Shown one piece after another: positions 19,336 to 62,370 of a DNA stretch of 64,000 bases. The position numbers and the translations under genes were made by a program. The notes under the pieces were generated by a model. That model ran no database searches. It saw only the letters and a program-made list of their open reading frames with translations, and had not been told where the DNA came from. This DNA is from Sneathiella sp. HT1-7 (GTDB taxonomy: Bacteria; Pseudomonadota; Alphaproteobacteria; Sneathiellales; Sneathiellaceae), in NCBI RefSeq assembly GCF_020731145.1, contig NZ_JAJFZN010000003.1:744001-808000 (forward strand), given 5' to 3'. Within the stretch, counting starts at the first letter, position 1, and each line of letters begins with the position of its first letter.

Positions 19336-19626
19336 TTAATCGCGATCTTCTGCTTTTGCCCAGCCACGCGACTTGAGTTGTTCCTTCAATGCCTGGATTT
19401 CAAGCGCCGCTTCGGCGAGGAGTGATTTTAGTCTCTGGTTCTCTCCATCAACCTTTTTGAGGCGGTTAATTTCCTCTGCGCCCGTTTGTTCCGCGCGTTT
19501 TTTCCAACGATAAATGGTGGCCTTGGAAATGCCGTATCGCTTTGCGGTATCATCCACCGACTGGCCGTCGATGAGTTCTCGAAGGATCGCTCTGATCTCC
19601 TGCTGAGTATAGTTTTTGCGTTCCAT
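19336..19626 (-). CDS. Orphan IS3-type OrfA / HTH protein
   Basis: About 96 residues: an N-terminal helix-turn-helix (EIRAILRELIDGQSVDDTAK, then YGISKATIYRWKKRAE) and a C-terminal leucine-zipper-like coiled coil (ENQRLKSLLAEAALEIQALK). This is the OrfA layout of IS3-family transposases. No OrfB (DDE) reading frame follows; recQ begins 56 bases away. It is either an insertion-sequence remnant or a captured DNA-binding protein. The ATG at 19626 has GAGGA eleven bases upstream; an in-frame ATG at 19644 has no visible ribosome site. It reads in the same direction as the neighbouring reb genes. Confidence 0.7.
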   Translation of the reverse strand: MERKNYTQQEIRAILRELIDGQSVDDTAKRYGISKATIYRWKKRAEQTGAEEINRLKKVDGENQRLKSLLAEAALEIQALKEQLKSRGWAKAEDRD

Positions 19627-19741
19627 GAGACTGAACGTCCTCATATTAATGTTTCTAAATTGCCATCGGACCTCAGCTTTCTTGGGGTCAGATTTAACCC
19701 TCCGTTTTCCGGCATGGCCGCCGCGTCATATCCCGGGCAGA
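19627..19741 (-). other. Possible left end of an IS3-family remnant
   Basis: Between the last reb gene and OrfA. On the minus strand TGACCCC (19690-19684) lies about 60 bases before the OrfA start, the position and TGA beginning usual for an IS3 left end. No matching right end was found before recQ. It could instead be an ordinary spacer. Confidence 0.3.
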
Positions 19742-20074
19742 TTATTGCTGTTTACCAAGCTCATTGACCACGGCCTGAAGGGCGGCAAGGTTTTCCGGGA
19801 TGGCGCTGCCCGCAATCAAGTCCTGAGAGGCTTTTGCCGCTGCTGCCGGATCGCTGCTTAGCAATTGTTTGGAGGCTGCGATGGTAATGGCGTTATGGAT
19901 GGAGTAGCTGTGCTGCTGCTGGGAAATGACATTCTGAAGCGCCAGCCCGATCGTGTGGGCCATCTGTTGATATAGAATAGCCATGGCCTCCGCGGGGGCA
20001 TCGCCAAGTACGCTCAAATTCGTCTGGGCGATGGATCCTGTGACTTGGCTGTTTACATAGGATTCTGACGTCAT
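19742..20074 (-). CDS. Reb-family R-body protein (paralogue 1)
   Basis: A 110-residue small helical protein with the RebB ('killing trait') signature: VNSQVTGSIAQTN, SVLGDAPAEAMAILYQQMAH and IGLALQNVISQQQHSY. Reb proteins polymerise into R-bodies, cytoplasmic coiled ribbons which in Caedibacter unroll at low pH and burst membranes. The C-terminal half (AAAAKASQDLIAGSAIPENLAALQAV) matches the other copies in plan: an Ala-rich helix ending in a P-x-x-xxAL segment. AGGAG lies upstream of the ATG. It is the last gene of the minus-strand reb series. Its role as ribbon subunit or assembly factor is not known. Confidence 0.85.
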   Translation of the reverse strand: MTSESYVNSQVTGSIAQTNLSVLGDAPAEAMAILYQQMAHTIGLALQNVISQQQHSYSIHNAITIAASKQLLSSDPAAAAKASQDLIAGSAIPENLAALQAVVNELGKQQ

Positions 20075-20123
20075 TACCGCTCTCCTGTTTATTTACTGAA
20101 ATTCCGGACTGGTTGTTCGAGCG

Positions 20124-20528
20124 CTATTTTTTCATAGGCGTTTGCGGCGGGATGTGGGATGCCTGATGCGTGGGGGTATGTGTGGACGCATGTGTGGGCG
20201 CCACATGGGGGGTATGATAATGTGTTGTTGGTGCGTATCCAGAGCGTGAGAGCAAGCCAGCGGTGCTGCGCCCGGCCGTGGCGGACGATAGCGACAGAAG
20301 CGAATTCAGATTCTGCGCTGTTGAGGCGAGGCTGAGACTGTACATATGTTGTTGGTTCGCGACGGCGTTCTGGACAGCCACCCCGACGGCCTGGGCGGTC
20401 GTCTGGTACAATGTGCCCATCGATTGCGCGGGCGCAAGACCGATAATCATGGTGTTGGACTGGGTAATGGCATCCGTAATCTGGCTGTTCACCGATTTGA
20501 CGTGTACTGTATTTCTTTGCGCTGTCAT
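20124..20528 (-). CDS. Reb-family R-body protein with histidine-rich tail (paralogue 2)
   Basis: A 134-residue protein. Residues 12-65 carry the Reb core (VNSQITDAITQSN, GLAPAQSMGTLYQTTAQAVG, VQNAVANQQHMYSL). The usual C-terminal helix is replaced by a Ser-rich linker and a tail of about 35 residues made almost wholly of His, Thr, Pro, Ala and Ser, with seven histidines within about 25 residues. Such a tail changes charge near pH 6 and can bind metal; a pH-sensing or membrane-contact role is my inference, based on the known pH-driven extension of R-bodies. AGGA precedes the ATG. The 120-base upstream gap contains two perfect inverted repeats. Confidence 0.85.
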   Translation of the reverse strand: MTAQRNTVHVKSVNSQITDAITQSNTMIIGLAPAQSMGTLYQTTAQAVGVAVQNAVANQQHMYSLSLASTAQNLNSLLSLSSATAGRSTAGLLSRSGYAPTTHYHTPHVAPTHASTHTPTHQASHIPPQTPMKK

Positions 20529-20560
20529 GGGACTATCCTGTTATCATAGCTGCTGGCGGC

Positions 20561-20609
20561 TCGAATATTGCGCGATTGACCGGCAAAGGCCAAACGGCGC
20601 AATATTCGA
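20561..20609. repeat. 13-bp perfect inverted repeat between reb genes
   Basis: TCGAATATTGCGC (20561-20573) and GCGCAATATTCGA (20597-20609) are perfect complements around a 23-base loop, in the gap between Reb paralogues 3 and 2. There is no T-run, so it is more likely an RNA-stability or processing hairpin, or a protein-binding site, than a terminator. Confidence 0.75.
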
Positions 20610-20618
20610 TATACCAAT

Positions 20619-20636
20619 GAGAAGAGAGGTCTTCTC
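20619..20636. repeat. 7-bp hairpin after Reb paralogue 3
   Basis: GAGAAGA (20619-20625) and TCTTCTC (20630-20636) form a perfect stem with a GAGG loop, 13 bases after the stop of paralogue 3 on the minus strand and just before the larger inverted repeat. Confidence 0.6.
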
Positions 20637-20648
20637 GGGCCGGCGGGG

Positions 20649-21005
20649 TTAGGTGTTAAACTTTGGAGAGTTTGGATTGCTTTCCTTGAAACTAGCCAGC
20701 ACGCCTTTCAGTGACGCCATGGTTTCTGCCACGGGATTTCCGCTTAAGACTTCCTGTGTTGCCTTGCCTTCCGCCGCCACATCGAGGGTGTAGAGCATGC
20801 TCACTGCTCCCGTTACAACAGCAGAATCGATGGAATTCTTATGCTGTTGATTGGCCACCATGTTCTGCATGGACATACCTGTTGACTGGGCCATCATCTG
20901 ATAGAGCATGCCCATGGATTCCGCGGGCGCATCGCCCAGAACTTTGACGTTGGTTTGTGTGACAGCGTCAGTAATCTGGCTGTTCATCCAAGTGTTATCC
21001 GCCAT
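20649..21005 (-). CDS. Reb-family R-body protein (paralogue 3)
   Basis: A 118-residue protein with a textbook RebB core: MNSQITDAVTQTN, VLGDAPAESMGMLYQMMAQS and GMSMQNMVANQQHKNSID. The second half (AAEGKATQEVLSGNPVAETM) shares the G/S-N-x-x-AE element with paralogues 4 and 5, and the tail is polar (SNPNSPKFNT). AAAGGAG precedes the ATG. Methionine content is high in the core, as in paralogue 5. It belongs to the tightly spaced paralogue 5-4-3 group, with gaps of about 40-50 bases, followed by two hairpins that separate it from paralogue 2. Likely a structural ribbon subunit (inference). Confidence 0.88.
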   Translation of the reverse strand: MADNTWMNSQITDAVTQTNVKVLGDAPAESMGMLYQMMAQSTGMSMQNMVANQQHKNSIDSAVVTGAVSMLYTLDVAAEGKATQEVLSGNPVAETMASLKGVLASFKESNPNSPKFNT

Positions 21006-21046
21006 TATTTAACTCCTTTAATGTTCAATTCGTGAGAAAAATCAAA

Positions 21047-21367
21047 TCAGAATGCGCGAGAGGCCGCCTGAAGTGAGGTGAGGGCCTCGGCAACCGGGTT
21101 GCCACCGAGAATCTCAGAGGTTGCTTTCGCATCCGCCGAAGTCGACATGGCGTACAGGACATTCGTACCCTGGGTTGTTACGGCAAGGTCAACCGTGTTG
21201 GCGCCCTGCTGGTTCGAGACGGCATTCTGCATGCTTGCGCCGACGACCTGGGCAAATACCTGATAGGCATTTGCCATGGCGATGGATGGTGCGTCACCTA
21301 ATACGCTTACGTTTGACTGGGTGACTGAATCGGTAATTTGGGCATTGACTGGTGTATCCCCTGGCAT
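21047..21367 (-). CDS. Reb-family R-body protein (paralogue 4)
   Basis: A 106-residue RebB-type protein: VNAQITDSVTQSN, VLGDAPSIAMANAYQVFAQV and GASMQNAVSNQQGANTVD, then an Ala/Ser-rich helix (SADAKATSEILGGNPVAEAL). It is the shortest of the seven and has almost no tail after the second helix. AAAGGAG precedes the ATG. The spacing to paralogues 5 and 3 (48 and 41 bases) implies one transcript. The high identity of the core to paralogues 3 and 5 indicates local tandem duplication followed by divergence. Confidence 0.88.
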   Translation of the reverse strand: MPGDTPVNAQITDSVTQSNVSVLGDAPSIAMANAYQVFAQVVGASMQNAVSNQQGANTVDLAVTTQGTNVLYAMSTSADAKATSEILGGNPVAEALTSLQAASRAF

Positions 21368-21415
21368 GGGTCATTCTCCTTTAATAGTCAGGTAAAAATC
21401 CTGTTTAGTGGGTTG

Positions 21416-21769
21416 TTAAGTTTGTGACTTTTGCTCACTTTGCGCTTTCTTTAATTCAACAATGATAGCCTGAAGCGCGGAGACTATTTCTGCGTTTACA
21501 TTCCCCGAAAGGATCTCTTCGGAGGCTCTCGCCTCGAGAGAGTCATCCATGCTGTACAGCATGGCGATCCCCTGGGTGACGATGGCGTTGTCGATAGTGT
21601 TCATGTTTTGCTGGTTCGACACCGCGTTTTGCATGGACACACCGACGGATTGCGCCATCATCTGGTAGACGGTTCCCATTGACTGGGCCGGGGCGCCACC
21701 GACCACTGTTAGATTGGATTGGGTCACGGCATCGGTAATTTGGCTGTTGACCGGGGTGTCGTTTGCCAT
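21416..21769 (-). CDS. Reb-family R-body protein (paralogue 5)
   Basis: A 117-residue RebB-type protein: VNSQITDAVTQSN, VVGGAPAQSMGTVYQMMAQS and GVSMQNAVSNQQNMNTID, then SLEARASEEILSGNVNAEIV and a Lys/Gln-rich tail (KKAQSEQKSQT). AGAGGA precedes the ATG. It is the first gene of the 5-4-3 group, and the 444-base gap upstream of it should hold the promoter; nested inverted repeats lie at 21867-21902. Of the seven it appears closest to the standard RebB pattern. Confidence 0.9.
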   Translation of the reverse strand: MANDTPVNSQITDAVTQSNLTVVGGAPAQSMGTVYQMMAQSVGVSMQNAVSNQQNMNTIDNAIVTQGIAMLYSMDDSLEARASEEILSGNVNAEIVSALQAIIVELKKAQSEQKSQT

Positions 21770-22213
21770 TGATTAATCCTCTTTTATTCCTGTCATGGTC
21801 AATCGGTGGACTGTTTCCTCATTCATGGGAGGAAGACGTTGGCAATTGAGAAAATGTGACGCAGGCATGAGATTTTCTTCTCAAATGTGAGAAAACTCTC
21901 ATGTGAATTGTGTCAAATTATCTAGATTTGATTGCGTCATCGGAAAGCCGGGTGGCGCGGGCGACAGGTTTTATTTGGTAATCATGGCTCCTATTTCCCG
22001 GTATTCTGAGGTTTTTCCGCTGTTATCACAATGATATAGGGAAGTCCTGTTTGAGCGGGGAGAGGGTCAGGAAAGCCCGACTTTTTAAATATTACGCGGA
22101 TTAGTGCTTCATGACGTTGCGGGATATACCTGCCTAAGCAATTGGTCGCAAAATTCAATAAAAGGAACCTGCAAGGCGGAGGCGTATCCTCCGTCTCGTC
22201 AGGGGCTTTCGGG
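21770..22213 (-). promoter_or_regulatory. Long spacer upstream of reb paralogue 5
   Basis: No credible gene. It contains nested inverted repeats at 21867-21902: TTCTCA/TGAGAA around AATG, flanked by ATGAGA and TCTCAT. On the minus strand a TTGACA lies upstream of these repeats, but no good -10 box follows at 17 bases, as might be expected if an alternative sigma factor is used. A CGGAGG/CCTCCG hairpin at 22177-22193, just after the stop of paralogue 6, may end that transcript; it lacks a T-run. Confidence 0.5.
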
Positions 22214-22669
22214 TCATCCGCCCATTTGTTTCACAATCTGGTCCATAGCAGCGGCAGTTGCTGCCACCGCGTCGGCGGTAATTCCGGCAATTTCCTGGCT
22301 TGTTTGCGCAGCGAGCGCGGTTCCGCCTGCACTAGTTACTGCGTTCAAGCTTGTCACCGCTGCCTGGGTTTGTGCATTTAGTGCCTGAGTAATAGCGGCC
22401 GTTTGCGCGTTATAGGATTCGCCAATCGTCGCCTTCTGCGCGGATATGGAAACAGCTTCCGCATTTTTTAGAGCGGCGAGAGCGGCGGCTCCGGAATTTG
22501 TGACACTGTTCATCAGGTTTGAGTTGGCAGTTGCATTCTCAAGCGCGAGACCGGAGGAATGAGCCGCAAACTGATAAAGCAGACCCATTGCGAACTGAGC
22601 GGAGTCTTCGATTTTTGTGGGTGAGGTTGACGGAGCGCTATCGCTGCCAGAGGAGGGAGGAGAAGCCAT
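22214..22669 (-). CDS. Divergent Reb-family protein with long Ala-rich helix (paralogue 6)
   Basis: A 151-residue protein. The N-terminus is Ser/Pro-rich and lacks the NSQITDAVTQ motif of the others. Residues 22-60 keep the Reb core (SAQFAMGLLYQFAAHSSGLA, LENATANSNLMNSVTNSGAA). The rest is a long Ala/Gln/Thr helix with repeated NAQT/TAA units and almost no charge, a likely amphipathic rod or coiled coil. The ribosome site is weak (TTGGAT). It stands apart from the 5-4-3 group and may be a cap, scaffold or membrane-contact component; no function is established. Confidence 0.75.
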   Translation of the reverse strand: MASPPSSGSDSAPSTSPTKIEDSAQFAMGLLYQFAAHSSGLALENATANSNLMNSVTNSGAAALAALKNAEAVSISAQKATIGESYNAQTAAITQALNAQTQAAVTSLNAVTSAGGTALAAQTSQEIAGITADAVAATAAAMDQIVKQMGG

Positions 22670-22731
22670 AATAAATATCCAATATGCGTAAATAAAATGA
22701 ATTAGAATGTATATTAAAAGTTGTAGAAAAA

Positions 22732-23187
22732 TTATTCGCCTGTTTTAGTGGGTGTTGTTTCTTCCACTGTCGTATCGTCTGAATTCGCAGTTGCATCGGG
22801 CGTCGCTGCTGCGCTGCTGCTATCATTCGATGTGGCGGACTGCGCGGAATTATCACTGGTACCAGCTGTTGGGGCTTCTGCGCCCGGGTTGATGGTGAGG
22901 GACATGAGTTTCTGCAGATAGTCGAGACGCTCTACTGGCGTCATTCTCTCGACTTGGTCCGCCATGCCGGTACGAAGAAGACCACTTGTCCCCGCGGCGA
23001 CAGCGGCAGTTCCCAGAATATTGAGATGCTGCTGATTGGTCACCGCATTTTGAGAGGCTATTCCCGCTGCATGTGCTAAGTTTAAATACATAGTTGCCAT
23101 TGACTTTGATGTTGAGCTGCCTATCAATATTTCGTTAGTAGATATTATAGAATTTTTAATTTGATCGTCAGTTTGTGAGCTTGCCAT
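22732..23187 (-). CDS. Divergent Reb-family protein with acidic Ser/Thr tail (paralogue 7)
   Basis: About 151 residues. The Reb core is present (DDQIKNSIISTNEILIGSS, SMATMYLNLAHAAGIASQNA, VTNQQHLNIL). After residue 95 comes a low-complexity tail rich in Ser, Ala, Thr, Asp and Glu (SNDSSSAAATPDATANSDDT), probably disordered. The start at 23187 (ATGGCAAGC) with GGAAA upstream is preferred; a frame from 23253 would add a hydrophobic AT-rich-coded segment that looks spurious. It is the first reb gene next to the divergent sigma factor and is preceded by very AT-rich DNA. Confidence 0.78.
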   Translation of the reverse strand: MASSQTDDQIKNSIISTNEILIGSSTSKSMATMYLNLAHAAGIASQNAVTNQQHLNILGTAAVAAGTSGLLRTGMADQVERMTPVERLDYLQKLMSLTINPGAEAPTAGTSDNSAQSATSNDSSSAAATPDATANSDDTTVEETTPTKTGE

Positions 23188-23474
23188 TATTATATTTCCA
23201 TAAGTAAATAAAATTATATAATTTAAAAATAGATATTTATTAATATAATTCAATTATGAATAAATTAAAAAATATTTATGTATGATTTTATAGAAATTAA
23301 TACTACATATTTATTGATTTCATACACACGTATAAAATATATTATAAAATAAAATACACTTTAAAAGTGAATTTTTGCCCCTAAATGAAGAGACTGTAAG
23401 CGGGTGGCGCAATCGAAAAGTCATCCTTTAGTCATTTTTGTTTTCCACATATTCAAATCTTCTAGGGGGTCATT
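23188..23474. promoter_or_regulatory. AT-rich divergent region between reb 7 and the sigma factor gene
   Basis: About 287 bases, overwhelmingly A+T from 23190 to 23370, in strong contrast to the rest of the window. It should hold the promoters of both divergent genes. A 13-base palindrome CACTTTAAAAGTG lies at 23357-23369. The composition suggests a curved or silenced promoter region and is compatible with acquisition by transfer. Confidence 0.55.
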
Positions 23475-24194
23475 GTGAATCCGCTCCGGCAAGAACGTAC
23501 ACCTAAACCCGACCATGTCAGCCCGCTATCCATTTCCCAATCCACGATCTCTTATCCCGTCAATCTTTCCATTGCGACCCTGAAAACTGAAATTTCAGAG
23601 TCGGATAACTCAGATCAAGACGCAGCGGTGAATTTATCGGCTCCAGCAGTAAGTAAGAAAGATGTTCCCGATGAGTTTTGGGTGGCATGGCACTCCCATA
23701 AGGAGTATTTAATAAAACTCAGTATGGTCTGGATGAACGTTAGCCCGGCGGATGCAGAAGATGCGTTCAGTGACGCCACAATTCGCGCTTATGAGAAATA
23801 TGCTGCCCATGCAGCGCAGATCAGTAATGAGCGAGCCTGGTTCGCGCGTCTTCTGCATAATATCTGTATCGACAAGCATCGGGCCAATAAGCGCGTACGG
23901 AATCTTCATGAGAAGGTGAAGGAAATCAATGTTATCGATATGTCCGCCCTTGATACCTTTCAGCTGACCCCGGAAGGAAACCTGTTGAATGCCGAACTTA
24001 GCCGTCGACTGCGCGCTGCGATTGAAGCCCTACCTGATCGATTGAAGTCGCCGGTCGTTCTCAGGTTGGTTCAGGGGGAGGAGTATGATGACATTGCCCG
24101 TAAACTCGGTATCTCAAACGATAACGTGCGTAAGCGGGTACAACAGGGGCGTAGTCTACTCCGTGAAAATTTAAAGAGCTTTCGCGGCGAGTAA
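23475..24194 (+). CDS. ECF-type RNA polymerase sigma factor
   Basis: A 239-residue sigma-70-family protein. After an unusual N-terminal extension of about 65 polar residues comes region 2 (KLSMVWMNVSPADAEDAFSD, then ATIRAYEKYA and NERAWFARLLHNICIDKHR), and after a linker comes region 4 (RLRAAIEALPDRLKSPVVLR, EYDDIARKLGISNDNVRKRV). It would direct RNA polymerase to a small set of promoters. The start is GTG at 23475 with AGGGGG nine bases upstream. No anti-sigma gene is adjacent; the N-terminal extension might fulfil that function. It lies divergent from the reb genes, and sigma factor genes are known neighbours of Reb loci in proteobacteria. Confidence 0.88.
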   Translation: MNPLRQERTPKPDHVSPLSISQSTISYPVNLSIATLKTEISESDNSDQDAAVNLSAPAVSKKDVPDEFWVAWHSHKEYLIKLSMVWMNVSPADAEDAFSDATIRAYEKYAAHAAQISNERAWFARLLHNICIDKHRANKRVRNLHEKVKEINVIDMSALDTFQLTPEGNLLNAELSRRLRAAIEALPDRLKSPVVLRLVQGEEYDDIARKLGISNDNVRKRVQQGRSLLRENLKSFRGE

Positions 24195-24317: not shown

Positions 24318-27314
24318 ATGACAGAAGGTATCGTTCTGCGCGATGAGCGCGCGGACACTTCGCCCATTGTCTCGGACGAAGTTAAATACACAACCTGCTA
24401 TATGTGCGCCTGCCGTTGCGGGATAAAAGTGCATCTCAAAGATAATCAGATCCGCTATATTGAGGGGAATCCTGATCATCCGGTGAATAAGGGGGTCCTC
24501 TGCGCTAAAGGGTCCGCCGGGATTATGCAGCAAAATTCCCCGGCAAAACTTCAAAAGCCGCTCCTGCGCGTGGGCGAGCGGGGCGAAGGAAAGTTCAAGG
24601 AAATCGAATGGGAAGAGGCACTTGACCTTGCAACCGAATGGTTGAAGGACGTGCGCGCGGATGATCCGTCAAAACTTGCCTTTTTTACCGGCCGTGATCA
24701 ATCACAAAGCTTCACCGGCTGGTGGGCGAAGCAGTACGGTACCCGGAATTTTGCCGCCCATGGCGGGTTTTGCTCGGTGAATATGGCTGCTGCGGGGCTT
24801 TACTCTATTGGTGGTTCTTTTTGGGAGTTTGGGGAGCCGGACTGGGATCACACCAAATATTTCATGATGTTCGGCGTGGCGGAGGATCATGACTCCAACC
24901 CGATCAAGATGGGGCTTGGTCGGCTCAAAACGCGTGAAGAAGCGAAGTTTGTCTCCATCAATCCGGTTCGCAGCGGTTATTCCGCCATTGCTGATGAGTG
25001 GATCGGAATTACGCCCGGCACCGATGGTCTCTTTGTCATGGCGATTATTCATGAACTGCTCCGTGCGGAAAAAATCGATTGGGACTATTTGAAACGCTAT
25101 ACCAATGCGTCCTGGCTGGTTATTCAGGCAGAAGGTGACGCGGAAGACGGGCTTTTTGCAAGAAACGCGACGGGGACTACCCTGATTGCCACATCAGAAG
25201 GGAAGCTATTGCCGCACAGCGACCGGAAGGCCGATCCTGTACTGGTTGGATCTTATACTCTTCCCTCTGGCAAAAAAGCAGTCCCGGCGTTTCAATTGAT
25301 GGCGGAACGCTATCTCGATGACGCATATGCGCCGGAGGCTGTCGCGGAACGTGTTGGTATAAAAGCCGCCACCATCCGCCGGATTGCAGCAGAGATAGCA
25401 GACGTTGCGTTTGAGCAGGAAATTACTCTCGATATCCCCTGGACGGACTGGGCCGGACGGCCACAAAAATCAATGACAGGTCGGCCGGTTTCGATGCATG
25501 CCATGCGCGGTATTTCGGCCCATTCAAACGGCTTTCATACCTGCCGCGCCATTCATCTATTGCAGATGATAATTGGCACAATCGATGTTCCGGGCGGGTT
25601 CCGTCATAAGCCGCCTTTCCCGAAACCCTGTCCGCCGGGGCCTTTTCCGGCAGGACAGGAAACAGCTGCGAACACTCCCTTGGACGGTATGCCGCTTGGC
25701 TTTCCAAAAGGGCCGGAAGATTTGCTGGTTGATGAGGCGGGTAACCCAAAACGGATTGATAAGGCCTATAGCTGGGAATTTCCGCTATCCGCTCATGGTT
25801 TGATGCATAGCGTCATTCATAATGCCTGGGCCGGGGACCCGCAGGAAATCGATGTCCTGTTCATGTATATGTCGAATATGGGCTGGAACAGCACGATGAA
25901 CGTGCCGGACACCATTCGCTATCTCACAGATAAAAAGCCGGATGGCAGCTACAAAATTCCAAAAATCATTTATTCCGATGCCTATCATTCGGAAACCGTG
26001 GCATTTGCTGATTTGATACTGCCGGACACCACCTATCTTGAACGGTGGGACTGCATTTCTCTGCTCGATCGGCCTATTTCCAGTGCCCATGGCGCGGCGG
26101 ATGCAATTCGCCAACCCATTATTGCGCTCGATCGGGATGTCCGACCGTTTCAGGATGTGATGCTTGATCTTGGGGTTCGGTTGGGGCTTCCTGGCTTTGT
26201 CGCTGAGGATGGGGCCGCGCAATTTCCCGGTGGTTACTCTGATTATATCGTCAATCATGAGCGCACACCCGATGTTGGGCCCCTGGCGGGCTGGCGCGGA
26301 GAAGATGGATCGGGGCAGGGGCGCGGCGCTGCGAACAGCGCACAGCTTGATGCCTATATCGAGAATGGTTGTTTCTGGGAGAAAAAATTTACGCCGGAGC
26401 AGTCCTATTACAAGTTCGCCAATAAATCCTATCTGGAGGAAGCCGTCCATATGGGTTGGCTCGCCATGCCAAGTCCTGTGGTGATGGAGGTTTATTCTGA
26501 AACCATGCAGAAATTCCGTCTCGCAGCGCAGGGCTTCGGCGATCGGCAACCGCCAGATCATTTGCGTGAACGCGTATCGACATTCTTTGATCCTTTGCCG
26601 CTTTGGTATGCGCCTTTTGCTGATGAAGATAAAGGGGAGGGTTTCCCCCTTCACGCGGTGACCCAACGGCCTATGCATATGTATCATAGTTGGGGTAGCC
26701 AGAACGCCTGGCTTCGTCAGATAACGGCACGTAACCCGTTGTTCATACATGCCGATACAGCGGCAGCGAAAGGCATTACCGATGACGACTGGCTCTGGGT
26801 AAGCTCTCCCTTTGGTAAGGTGAAGGCACAGGCGAAGCTGATGCGCGGCGTTAATCCGCATACGGTTTGGACCTGGAACGCTATCGGGAAGCGCAAAGGG
26901 GCATGGAACCTTAAAGAGGATGCCCCGGAGGCCACAAAAGGCTTTTTGCTGAACCATATTATATCCGAATTATTGCCCCCGCGCGAAGACGGCTATCGTT
27001 ATTCAAACTCCGATCCGGTGACAGGACAGGCGGCATGGTACGACTTGCGGGTTAGTATTGAGAAATGCGACGAAGCCGATTTTGGGGAGACAGAACCAAT
27101 GTTCGAGGCGCAAGGCAGTGCCGGACTCCCCGAACCGACGGAGCTTTTACGTTATGGCGCGGACCTCAAAGGGGCAGAGAGTAACCTAGACCCGGTGCCG
27201 ATGAAGGATTGGATTGGAAACCGGACGGAAAACGCCGGACAGGGCAGCGGTATTAAGCCCGGCCACGGCAACCAGATTGACGATGCACCCGCCAAGGCGG
27301 AGGAAACAGAATGA
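24318..27314 (+). CDS. soeA: Molybdopterin subunit of SoeABC-type sulfite dehydrogenase
   Basis: A 998-residue DMSO-reductase-family catalytic subunit. An N-terminal [4Fe-4S] is bound by C27, C30, C34 and C62 (CYMCACRCG, then VLCAKG). The segment AFFTGRDQSQSFTGWWAKQY followed by AAHGGFCSVNMAAAG is typical of SoeA, and Cys152 is a possible molybdenum ligand. There is no Tat signal, which agrees with SoeABC acting on the cytoplasmic face of the membrane, where it oxidises sulfite to sulfate and passes electrons to the quinone pool. The stop overlaps soeB by four bases (ATGA). Reading as a formate or other oxyanion enzyme is less likely. Confidence 0.85.
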   Translation: MTEGIVLRDERADTSPIVSDEVKYTTCYMCACRCGIKVHLKDNQIRYIEGNPDHPVNKGVLCAKGSAGIMQQNSPAKLQKPLLRVGERGEGKFKEIEWEEALDLATEWLKDVRADDPSKLAFFTGRDQSQSFTGWWAKQYGTRNFAAHGGFCSVNMAAAGLYSIGGSFWEFGEPDWDHTKYFMMFGVAEDHDSNPIKMGLGRLKTREEAKFVSINPVRSGYSAIADEWIGITPGTDGLFVMAIIHELLRAEKIDWDYLKRYTNASWLVIQAEGDAEDGLFARNATGTTLIATSEGKLLPHSDRKADPVLVGSYTLPSGKKAVPAFQLMAERYLDDAYAPEAVAERVGIKAATIRRIAAEIADVAFEQEITLDIPWTDWAGRPQKSMTGRPVSMHAMRGISAHSNGFHTCRAIHLLQMIIGTIDVPGGFRHKPPFPKPCPPGPFPAGQETAANTPLDGMPLGFPKGPEDLLVDEAGNPKRIDKAYSWEFPLSAHGLMHSVIHNAWAGDPQEIDVLFMYMSNMGWNSTMNVPDTIRYLTDKKPDGSYKIPKIIYSDAYHSETVAFADLILPDTTYLERWDCISLLDRPISSAHGAADAIRQPIIALDRDVRPFQDVMLDLGVRLGLPGFVAEDGAAQFPGGYSDYIVNHERTPDVGPLAGWRGEDGSGQGRGAANSAQLDAYIENGCFWEKKFTPEQSYYKFANKSYLEEAVHMGWLAMPSPVVMEVYSETMQKFRLAAQGFGDRQPPDHLRERVSTFFDPLPLWYAPFADEDKGEGFPLHAVTQRPMHMYHSWGSQNAWLRQITARNPLFIHADTAAAKGITDDDWLWVSSPFGKVKAQAKLMRGVNPHTVWTWNAIGKRKGAWNLKEDAPEATKGFLLNHIISELLPPREDGYRYSNSDPVTGQAAWYDLRVSIEKCDEADFGETEPMFEAQGSAGLPEPTELLRYGADLKGAESNLDPVPMKDWIGNRTENAGQGSGIKPGHGNQIDDAPAKAEETE

Positions 27315-28054
27315 CATCCCTTCCGACAACACCACCTAAGAAAAAGCTCGGCCTTGTGATCGATCTCGATATTTGCGTTGGTTGTCATGCCTGCGCGGTT
27401 AATTGCAAGGAATGGAATACCGGTGGGCATTCAGCGCCCCTTACAGACATAGATCCTTATGGTGCGGATCCAACAGGCGTTTGGTTCAACCGTATCCACA
27501 GTTTTGAGGTGGAGAATGAGGAAACGGGCGGGCGTACGGTCCATTTCCCAAAAAGCTGCCTGCATTGCGAGGATGCGCCCTGCGTGACCGTCTGTCCGAC
27601 CGGCGCGTCCTATAAGCGGGAGGAAGACGGCATCGTGCTCGTCAATGCGGATCATTGCATTGGCTGCAAGCTCTGTTCCTGGGCCTGCCCCTATGGCGCA
27701 CGGGAGTATGACGAGGATGCGGGGGTGATGAAGAAATGCACACTCTGTGTCGATAAAATTTATAACCCGAACTTGCCCGAAGAATCTCGCGTGCCTGCCT
27801 GTGTCTCTACTTGTCCGGCAGGCGCGCGTTCCTTCGGTGATCTCGGTGATCCCGACTCGGACGTGAGTAAACTCGTCGCGAAGCGTAGCGGTTACGACTT
27901 AATGCCCGAGCAGGAATGCAAGCCCACCAATAAATACTTGCCGCCCAGGCCGAAAAAACTGGGGAACGACGGGCCGCCACCAGAGCTTGCCCCGGTTGCC
28001 GATAGTTCGGCGGGTGTCATCGCCCGTTGGGTCGACAAGTTTCTTTCCGCGTAA
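27311..28054 (+). CDS. soeB: Four-cluster ferredoxin subunit of SoeABC-type enzyme
   Basis: A 247-residue iron-sulfur electron-transfer subunit. Cys groups typical of the DmsB/NrfC/SoeB fold are in order: CVGCHACAVNCKEWN near residue 25, CLHCEDAPCVTVCPT, CIGCKLCSWACPYGAREYD, and CTLCVDK with CVSTCPAGAR. It passes electrons from the molybdenum subunit to the membrane subunit. No signal peptide is present. It overlaps soeA by ATGA, and soeC starts 11 bases after its stop, so the three are made together. The C-terminal tail is proline-rich. Confidence 0.88.
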   Translation: MTSLPTTPPKKKLGLVIDLDICVGCHACAVNCKEWNTGGHSAPLTDIDPYGADPTGVWFNRIHSFEVENEETGGRTVHFPKSCLHCEDAPCVTVCPTGASYKREEDGIVLVNADHCIGCKLCSWACPYGAREYDEDAGVMKKCTLCVDKIYNPNLPEESRVPACVSTCPAGARSFGDLGDPDSDVSKLVAKRSGYDLMPEQECKPTNKYLPPRPKKLGNDGPPPELAPVADSSAGVIARWVDKFLSA

Positions 28055-28065
28055 TAGAGGCCAAA

Positions 28066-29016
28066 ATGCATCCGGCAAAATCGGTAATTTTCTTCACAAC
28101 AGCATCCGGCGCAGGGTATGGGCTGCTCGCGCTCCTGATAGCGGGGAATGTCCTCGGCGTTGTTCCCGCTCATTTCTGGCTGGCTTTTATCGGCTATGCG
28201 GTTAGCTATGTGTTGATCACGGGCGGACTTCTTTCTTCGACCTTTCACCTCGGCCATCCGGAGCGGGCATGGCGCGCATTGACACAGTGGCGTTCTTCCT
28301 GGCTCAGTCGAGAAGGGGTGATGGCAATCCTGACCTTTATTCCGACGGGGCTATATGCGCTTCATCAACTCTTTTTCCCGGACATGATGCAGGGAATTAT
28401 GGGGCTGGTCGGCATTCTCGGTGTGATTTTCTGTATCGTGACGGTTTATTGCACAGCGATGATATATGCCAGCTTGAAACCTATTCACGCCTGGTCGAAC
28501 AACTATGTCCCGGCGGGCTATTTACTGCTCGCCCTGATGAGCGGGCTGCTGCTGTTGAATGTCCTGCTGGCACTCTGGGGGACTACAGAAACGTCTCTGC
28601 AGCTTGCCACCTTGCTGGTCCTCGGGATCGCTTTTGCGTGGAAGATTACCTATTGGCGTTTCCTCGATAGCAGCAAGAGTATATCGACGCCCGAGAGTGC
28701 AACGGGGCTGGGTGAGTTTGGTGCCGTGAAACTGTTCGAGGCGCCGCATACGGAGGCAAACTATCTCATGAAGGAGATGGGCTTTAAAATCGCCCGGAAG
28801 CATTCCGCGAAACTCCGTCTGATCACTTTATTGGCAGGCTTTGTTGCTCCCATTTTATTGATATTAATCAGTCTTTTCTTCGGGACTGTTGGAACGGGAG
28901 TTTTACTGACCCTTGCTATTCTTTCTGCGGCGATTGGCTTGGTAACAGAACGCTGGCTCTTCTTCGCGGAGGCACGGCATACCGTTGGCCTCTATTACGG
29001 CGCATCCCACGCATAA
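28066..29016 (+). CDS. soeC: Membrane anchor subunit of SoeABC-type enzyme (DmsC family)
   Basis: A 317-residue integral membrane protein with about eight hydrophobic helices, starting MHPAKSVIFFTTASGAGYGL. The SSTFHLGHPERAWRAL and SSWLSREG motifs are hallmarks of DmsC/SoeC anchors, which bind the SoeAB dimer and reduce quinone. The ATG at 28066 follows AGAGG by five bases; a frame from 28027 would overlap soeB. A strong terminator ends the operon. Confidence 0.87.
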   Translation: MHPAKSVIFFTTASGAGYGLLALLIAGNVLGVVPAHFWLAFIGYAVSYVLITGGLLSSTFHLGHPERAWRALTQWRSSWLSREGVMAILTFIPTGLYALHQLFFPDMMQGIMGLVGILGVIFCIVTVYCTAMIYASLKPIHAWSNNYVPAGYLLLALMSGLLLLNVLLALWGTTETSLQLATLLVLGIAFAWKITYWRFLDSSKSISTPESATGLGEFGAVKLFEAPHTEANYLMKEMGFKIARKHSAKLRLITLLAGFVAPILLILISLFFGTVGTGVLLTLAILSAAIGLVTERWLFFAEARHTVGLYYGASHA

Positions 29017-62269: not shown

Positions 62270-62370
62270 GCGCTGATCAATGTATGACTGAACGGCAGGA
62301 TTGGTTTGTAAATTCTGCCGTTCCTTATTCTATCAGGCACACAATCATTCTTATAGCTGAGGAATTAAAC

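What the first reader, a model, noticed from the sequence alone, without database searches (positions are those of the whole stretch)
19742..24194. R-body (Reb) locus with seven divergent paralogues and a divergent ECF-type sigma factor
Seven consecutive minus-strand genes encode the Reb core (NSQITDAVTQSN, a GDAPAxSMGxLYQ segment and xQNAVxNQQ). Next to them, divergent, is an ECF-type sigma factor with a long N-terminal extension. Reb proteins build R-bodies, pH-driven protein ribbons best known as the killing agent of Caedibacter in Paramecium. Seven clearly different paralogues, three with unusual tails, in a free-living-looking metabolic genome suggest a multi-component ribbon or a changed purpose. 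No phage or plasmid genes surround it.
Basis: partly seen in the sequence, partly recalled or inferred. Interest (0 to 1): 0.85.

Follow-up and report, generated by a model that had tools for sequence, protein, structure and literature searches.

The report
Sneathiella R-body locus with ECF-sigma regulon
This is a cluster of seven related genes for R-bodies, coiled protein ribbons that some bacteria use against other cells; all well-sequenced species of the marine genus Sneathiella checked carry it, and a conserved promoter signature suggests that the regulator next to it also switches on genes elsewhere in the genome, which are new candidates for the ribbon's unknown partners.

Summary
Seven minus-strand reb genes (19742-23187) lie beside a divergent ECF sigma gene (23475-24194). 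Six pass Pfam RebB; the seventh (22214-22669) is sub-threshold, but its ortholog in a sister genus passes clearly. The host is a Sneathiella species. The block is colinear across the genus (all 19 near-complete family genomes have reb genes), each paralogue forms its own orthologous clade, and all seven are under purifying selection. It is not phage-borne.

Multi-paralogue reb loci (1-9 copies) and reb-linked sigma factors are already published, so the core is a new variant of a known kind. New, as far as the held library shows: (1) an ECF-type promoter TCACA-N16-CGTC before reb5 in 22 of 23 family loci, also found before reb genes and the sigma gene in an unrelated genus with the same sigma lineage; (2) the same promoter before unlinked genes, including a 105-aa Sneathiella protein (17/17 genomes); (3) a covarying double hairpin between reb3 and reb2; (4) an IS3-OrfA-like orphan regulator at the operon end; (5) a second methionine aminopeptidase gene inside the locus of a sister clade.

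No expression, ribbon or killing was shown. "Changed purpose" is possible but unsupported.

The parts
19742..20074 (-). reb1, Reb protein 110 aa (last reb gene of the operon)
   Evidence: PF11747 63.9 bits; 84-98% identical in the window's own clade; dN/dS 0.01-0.02
20124..20528 (-). reb2, Reb protein 134 aa with a His/Pro/Thr-rich tail
   Evidence: PF11747 78.8 bits; most variable of the core paralogues, dN/dS 0.11-0.25
20561..20609 (-). Second intergenic hairpin between reb3 and reb2 (TCGAATATTGCGC...GCGCAATATTCGA)
   Evidence: 13-bp stem with compensatory changes; fold z -4.85 for the whole gap; exact arms
20619..20636 (-). First intergenic hairpin directly after reb3 (GAGAAG...CTTCTC)
   Evidence: stem sequence differs between species while pairing is mostly kept
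20649..21005 (-). reb3, Reb protein 118 aa
   Evidence: PF11747 92.9 bits; dN/dS 0.02-0.04
21047..21367 (-). reb4, Reb protein 106 aa
   Evidence: PF11747 80.9 bits; dN/dS 0.02-0.06
21416..21769 (-). reb5, Reb protein 117 aa, first gene behind the ECF-type promoter
   Evidence: PF11747 96.5 bits
21833..21859 (-). ECF-type promoter TCACA-N16-CGTCTT, 90 bp before the reb5 start
   Evidence: strict motif in 22 of 23 family loci with reb5 upstream sequence; also before reb and sigma genes of an unrelated genus with the same sigma lineage; only exact match in the window
21888..21901 (-). Conserved inverted repeat TGAGAGTTTTCTCA (genus form TGNGA-N4-TCGCA), centred 35-37 bp before the -35 element; candidate activator site of Crp/Fnr type
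   Evidence: 19 of 22 loci with the promoter; coordinates. Binding protein unknown; the Crp/Fnr reading rests on architecture only
22214..22669 (-). reb6, divergent Reb 151 aa; lost the QITD region, long helical C-terminus
   Evidence: PF11747 19.7 bits, sub-threshold; ortholog in sister genus 51.7 bits; modelled as one helix 46-150, pLDDT over 90 in the middle
22732..23187 (-). reb7, divergent Reb 151 aa with an acidic Ser/Thr/Asp tail (the listed ORF opens at TTG 23253; ATG 23187 preferred)
   Evidence: PF11747 44.4 bits; alignment
23357..23369 (-). Palindrome CACTTTTAAAGTG in the AT-rich (22% GC) divergent region between sigma gene and reb7
   Evidence: conserved in all 19 aligned Sneathiella loci with a few substitutions; coordinates and GC; binding factor unknown
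23475..24194 (+). ECF-type sigma factor, 239 aa, about 65-aa variable N-terminal extension, no C-terminal extension
   Evidence: Sigma70_r2 and r4_2, TIGR02937 1.5e-20; 50-70% identical orthologs in 19 loci
19336..19644 (-). Orphan IS3-OrfA-like HTH plus coiled-coil protein, 102 aa, codirectional behind reb1; probable domesticated regulator
   Evidence: HTH_Tnp_1 2.4e-13; same place in 22 of 23 loci; dN/dS 0.07-0.16; no OrfB neighbour

Best explanation
This is the R-body locus of a Sneathiella species. Best-supported picture: when its signal comes, the divergently encoded ECF sigma directs RNA polymerase to TCACA-N16-CGTC before reb5 and transcribes reb5-4-3-2-1 and probably the small OrfA-like regulator; reb7-reb6 are read from their own, different promoter. 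A double hairpin between reb3 and reb2 probably sets segment stability, so that the conserved core subunits (reb5, reb4, reb3) and the downstream ones (reb2, reb1) are made in unequal amounts. The products polymerise into a coiled ribbon that extends on a trigger and breaks open the cell or an engulfing compartment, most likely as a defence or weapon against eukaryotic grazers or hosts. The same sigma probably switches on unlinked genes, so the ribbon is one output of a wider programme. Shown here: the genes, their conservation and selection, the promoter motif with its unlinked copies, and the covarying hairpins. Inferred: that this sigma reads that motif, that ribbons form, and the anti-eukaryote use.
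For: PF11747 on six of seven proteins, and on the sister-genus ortholog of the seventh. All 19 near-complete family genomes have reb genes, in a colinear block. By contrast, 10 of about 380 other sampled alphaproteobacteria have them. Each paralogue forms one clade that includes the sister-genus gene where assigned; dN/dS 0.01-0.25. Promoter in 22 of 23 loci. The motif lies before 15 of 88 reb or sigma genes in other reb loci against 0.21 expected by shuffling (7 of 508 control ORFs); 12 of the 15 are in the one genus whose cluster sigma is the closest relative of this one, and in two of its three genomes the sigma gene carries the motif too. Unlinked: gene A (105 aa) has the site about 48-54 bp upstream in 17 of 17 genomes, 14 of them not used to find it. 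Gene D (98 aa) has TCAC-N16-CGTC in 6 of 6. Genes B and C have it in 3 and 2 genomes. Hairpins: 10 pairs with two-sided changes against 2.9 shuffled, fold z -2.7 to -6.0.
Against: No expression data, microscopy or protein data. No paper in the held library links Sneathiella to R-bodies. The motif resembles the ECF41 promoter TGTCACA-n16-CGTC (PMC3426412), so another sigma could read it; the ECF41 content of the genome was not searched. Unlike many ECF genes, the Sneathiella sigma gene has no strict copy of the motif before itself. No group 1 partner genes or group 2 HP2.1/HP2.2-like genes lie in the locus, and some known loci may depend on such partners. The hairpin role is inferred from structure alone.
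Confidence: 0.7

Rival explanations
1. The locus makes a Reb polymer with a changed, non-killing purpose (for example a stress, dormancy or lysis structure), which is why every species keeps it and why a stress-type sigma factor reads it together with unlinked genes.
For: Present in all 19 near-complete family genomes, unlike the patchy presence in other alphaproteobacteria; conserved unlinked sites before genes with no family match; reb6 has lost a defining Reb region.
Against: The core paralogues keep the standard Reb motifs. Known R-body loci in free-living bacteria act in host interaction (PMC8322103, PMC5527310). Genus-wide fixation also fits constant grazing pressure.
Confidence: 0.2
2. 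The reb genes are R-body genes, but the TCACA-N16-CGTC promoter is read by another sigma factor (ECF41-like), and the divergent sigma acts on the AT-rich reb7 promoter or elsewhere.
For: ECF41 recognises TGTCACA-n16-CGTC (PMC3426412); the Sneathiella sigma gene lacks a strict copy of the motif.
Against: The cluster sigma has no ECF41-type C-terminal extension and does not reach any named NCBIfam subfamily cut-off. The motif is densest in the other genus with this sigma lineage, where the sigma gene itself carries it in two of three genomes.
Confidence: 0.15
3. The cluster is a decaying remnant or a selfish or phage-derived element without function.
For: The IS3-OrfA-like gene beside reb1; reb6 erosion; one phage family of unknown function (phrog_32040) matches reb5.
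Against: dN/dS 0.01-0.25 for all seven and for the OrfA-like gene; colinear genus-wide; no relative in 50,697 phage records or by pattern scan of viral contigs; metabolic neighbours.
Confidence: 0.02

Closest known systems
Caedibacter taeniospiralis rebA/B/D (type 51 R-body, plasmid pKAP298)
   Same: RebB-family subunits; reb5 finds it at 42.7% identity over 82% of the protein
   Different: Chromosomal, seven paralogues, ECF sigma, genus-wide; Caedibacter is a plasmid-bearing endosymbiont with rebC, which has no known homologs elsewhere
Pseudomonas aeruginosa PA14 reb cluster with FecI2 and RcgA (PMC8322103)
   Same: Reb paralogues under a cluster-encoded sigma factor; FecI2 regulon data exist (PMC4362757)
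   Different: No linked transcription factor of RcgA type seen in the Sneathiella locus; relation of the sigma factors and of rapA not tested (PA14 sequence not at hand)
Group 2 reb loci: Ruegeria pomeroyi, Labrenzia alexandrii (PMC3583457, PMC3764935)
   Same: ECF-type sigma at the reb locus in an alphaproteobacterium; Ruegeria has similar TCACG-N15-CGTC sites before a reb and another gene
   Different: Ruegeria sigma only 27% identical; hypothetical partner genes and Crp gene of that pattern are not in the Sneathiella locus
Unnamed alphaproteobacterial genus g216 (G289, G726, G729; 7-9 reb genes)
   Same: Closest cluster sigma (about 35-38% over the core) and the same promoter before several reb genes
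   Different: Several reb genes each have their own promoter; sigma N-terminal extension about 230-260 aa; sigma gene on the same strand
ECF41 sigma factors (PMC3426412)
   Same: Nearly the same promoter, TGTCACA-n16-CGTC
   Different: No C-terminal regulatory extension here; first two bases of the -35 not conserved

Membership tests
R-body (Reb) locus | Several adjacent genes with RebB (PF11747) domains | tested here: met
   Six of seven over the cut-off; reb6 through its sister-genus ortholog
R-body (Reb) locus | QITD, NAV and QQ signature motifs | tested here: met
   Clear in reb1-5, degenerate in reb7, mostly missing in reb6
R-body (Reb) locus | Products polymerise into coiled, SDS-resistant ribbons | not testable with these tools
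   Needs microscopy; the Reb5 model was low confidence (pLDDT 52)
Group 1 reb synteny (HP1.1-HP1.4) | HP1.1 and HP1.2 next to the reb genes | tested here: not met
   No unassigned ORF of that kind in the colinear block; Azospirillum and Eleftheria show the pattern. Rest of the genome not searched
Group 2 reb synteny | Sigma factor gene (HP2.3) at the locus | tested here: met
   but only 27% identical to the Ruegeria sigma
Group 2 reb synteny | HP2.1/HP2.2 and Crp-type HP2.4 genes | tested here: inconclusive
   None in the locus; one Ruegeria candidate (207 aa) not found in 10 genomes, without a positive control
ECF sigma factor | Regions 2 and 4 only, of sigma-70 type | tested here: met
   PF04542, PF08281, TIGR02937
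ECF41 sigma factor | Fused C-terminal extension | tested here: not met
   Protein ends right behind region 4 in all orthologs
IS3 insertion element | OrfA plus OrfB transposase | tested here: not met
   Only the OrfA-like gene is present; NCBIfam IS3 model 39 bits against a cut-off of 160

The most novel reading that the evidence does not exclude
The reb-linked ECF sigma runs a conserved programme in which the R-body is only one product, and the unlinked targets (the 105-aa gene A, the membrane protein gene B, genes C and D) include the missing partner: a protein delivered, released or protected by the ribbon, that is, the killing component that R-body research has not identified.
Probability: 0.12. 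Interest if true: 0.85.

Novelty: new variant of a known kind. Interest (0 to 1): 0.55.

Why it matters
How R-body genes are switched on, why loci carry several paralogues, and what partner does the killing are open questions. Here a whole genus keeps a seven-paralogue locus in fixed order, so each paralogue can be tested as a distinct part. A defined promoter with conserved unlinked copies gives a concrete list of candidate partners in marine bacteria. The covarying hairpins give a testable mechanism for subunit stoichiometry.

Tried and rejected
Phage origin: no relative in the phage collection or in a pattern scan of viral contigs. Hidden gene in the 444-bp reb6-reb5 gap of the window: none found; the 950-bp gap of a sister clade holds a methionine aminopeptidase instead. 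Solved structures: no Reb relative in the PDB by sequence. Structure models: Reb5 unusable (pLDDT 52), Reb6 a single long helix, so no fold search was run. Rfam: nothing over threshold. Conserved motif copies before a GntR-type regulator, a nuclease and a helicase were set aside, because there the site is part of another palindrome or lies in conserved coding sequence. Weak matches of the OrfA-like profile in other loci overlap reb genes in another frame and were ignored. Assigning the seven proteins to the published Reb groups needs supplementary seeds that could not be read.
Full report
Observation. Pfam RebB matches all seven, six above its cut-off; reb6 reaches 19.7 of 24 bits. The sister-genus ortholog of reb6 (L045:7560-8018) still has the N-terminal Reb stretch and scores 51.7 bits. 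So reb6 is a Reb that lost its first segment in Sneathiella and kept a long helical tail, modelled as one helix 46-150. The sigma is an ECF-type protein (TIGR02937 1.5e-20). Its N-terminal extension is real but hardly conserved, and it has no C-terminal extension.

Host and conservation. Nearest named relatives are Sneathiella sedimenti, S. litorea and Sneathiella MAGs. In the family 24 of 26 genomes have reb genes, and 19 of 19 that are near complete; the two without are 65-66% complete. In a sample of 385 alphaproteobacteria 15 have them, five of these being Sneathiella. Gene order xdh-recQ-orfA-reb1 to reb7-sigma is kept across the genus. In a tree of 119 Reb proteins the paralogues form separate clades, most with the sister-genus gene inside and full or near-full support, so they predate the genus (few columns, rough supports). 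Pairwise dN/dS within the window's clade is 0.01-0.25 for the reb genes and 0.07-0.16 for the OrfA-like gene. Nothing similar was found in phage records, and a pattern scan of viral contigs confirmed none.

Promoter. Aligned upstream regions of reb5 show TGAGAg-TTTCGCA, then TCACA..tTCTCA and CGTCTT. The strict form TCACA-N16-CGTC is present in 22 of 23 loci of the family with reb5 upstream sequence, the last one having TCACG; the inverted repeat lies 35-37 bp before the -35 in 19 of those 22. In the window the promoter is 21833-21859 and the only exact match. In other reb loci the motif precedes 15 of 88 reb or sigma genes, against 0.21 expected from shuffles and 7 of 508 control ORFs. Twelve of the 15 are in one unnamed genus (g216), whose cluster sigma is the nearest relative found outside the family (about 35-38% over the core), and there the sigma gene carries the motif in two of three genomes. 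This is the main argument that the cluster sigma reads the motif. The ECF41 promoter TGTCACA-n16-CGTC is very similar (PMC3426412), so another reader is not excluded.

Unlinked sites. TCACA-N16-CGTC occurs 32, 26 and 34 times in G000, G009 and G003, against 19, 15 and 9 for the reversed pattern. Comparing genes behind the sites gives conserved cases with diverged spacers. Gene A is a 105-aa protein (G000:C4:558006-558320). Gene B is a membrane protein of at least 326 aa. Gene C is a 184-aa acidic protein. Gene D (98 aa) came from the narrower pattern. Gene A occurs in 17 of 18 Sneathiella genomes searched and in none of nine others; all 17 have the site about 48-54 bp before the start. Fourteen of these were not used for discovery, and shuffling expects 0.04 in the 12 tested that way. 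Gene D occurs in six genomes, not in this one, and all six have TCAC-N16-CGTC 59-66 bp upstream, four of them independent. A, C and D have no Pfam match and B none of weight; PHROGs gives none.

RNA element. Between reb3 and reb2 lie two hairpins. On 12 aligned sequences 90.4% of cells pair, 10 pairs have two-sided changes (shuffled mean 2.9, none of 500 shuffles as high), and sliding the partner by one column drops pairing to 33-42%. In the sister clade the stem has another sequence (CTGAACCTCAC...GTGAGGTTCAG) and still folds. There is no U tract, so segment stabilisation or processing is more likely than termination; this is inference.

Accessory genes. The IS3-OrfA-like gene 19336-19644 is in the same place in 22 of 23 loci, without OrfB: a probable domesticated regulator. 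In a sister clade a second methionine aminopeptidase gene lies antisense between reb6 and reb5 (seen in G002, G003, G006, G010, G019, G022); the window genome has only the housekeeping one of that type.

Comparison. One to nine reb genes per genome, free-living hosts, and reb-linked sigma factors are published (PMC3583457; PMC3764935; PMC8322103), and several different Reb proteins are needed together for R-bodies in Azorhizobium (PMC5527310). The locus is therefore a new variant of a known kind. No held paper mentions Sneathiella with R-bodies or Reb, and no reb-locus paper passage read here reports this promoter.

Limits. No experiment was run. The sigma-promoter link, ribbon formation, stoichiometry control and biological target are inferences.

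Noticed in passing
L046:7819-8595 (G002), and G003, G006, G010, G019, G022 reb loci: A second methionine aminopeptidase (PF00557, 1.4e-41) sits antisense between reb6 and reb5 in one Sneathiella clade; RebB was once suspected to be modified after translation.
   Followed up: partly
window 23188-23474: The sigma-reb7 divergent region has only 22% GC in a 53% GC window and holds a genus-wide palindrome CACTTTTAAAGTG with no known binder.
   Followed up: partly
L079, L083, L084 (genus g216): Cluster sigma factors with N-terminal extensions of about 230-260 aa without Pfam match; several reb genes there each carry their own copy of the promoter.
   Followed up: partly
L073 and L082 (G053): An alphaproteobacterium with eleven reb matches, ten in one cluster and one far away; more than the nine reported in the 2013 survey.
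   Followed up: no
window 24318-29016: A molybdopterin oxidoreductase, ferredoxin and NrfD-type operon follows the sigma gene in the window's clade but was not seen at this place in several other species.
   Followed up: no
window 62284-63778: Two tandem nitroreductase-like genes of similar sequence at the end of the window (judged by eye).
   Followed up: no
window 21416-21769 against PHROGs phrog_32040: A PHROGs family of unknown function matches reb5 at 8.6e-23, so at least one protein in that phage library is a Reb, although the phage records gave no match.
   Followed up: partly
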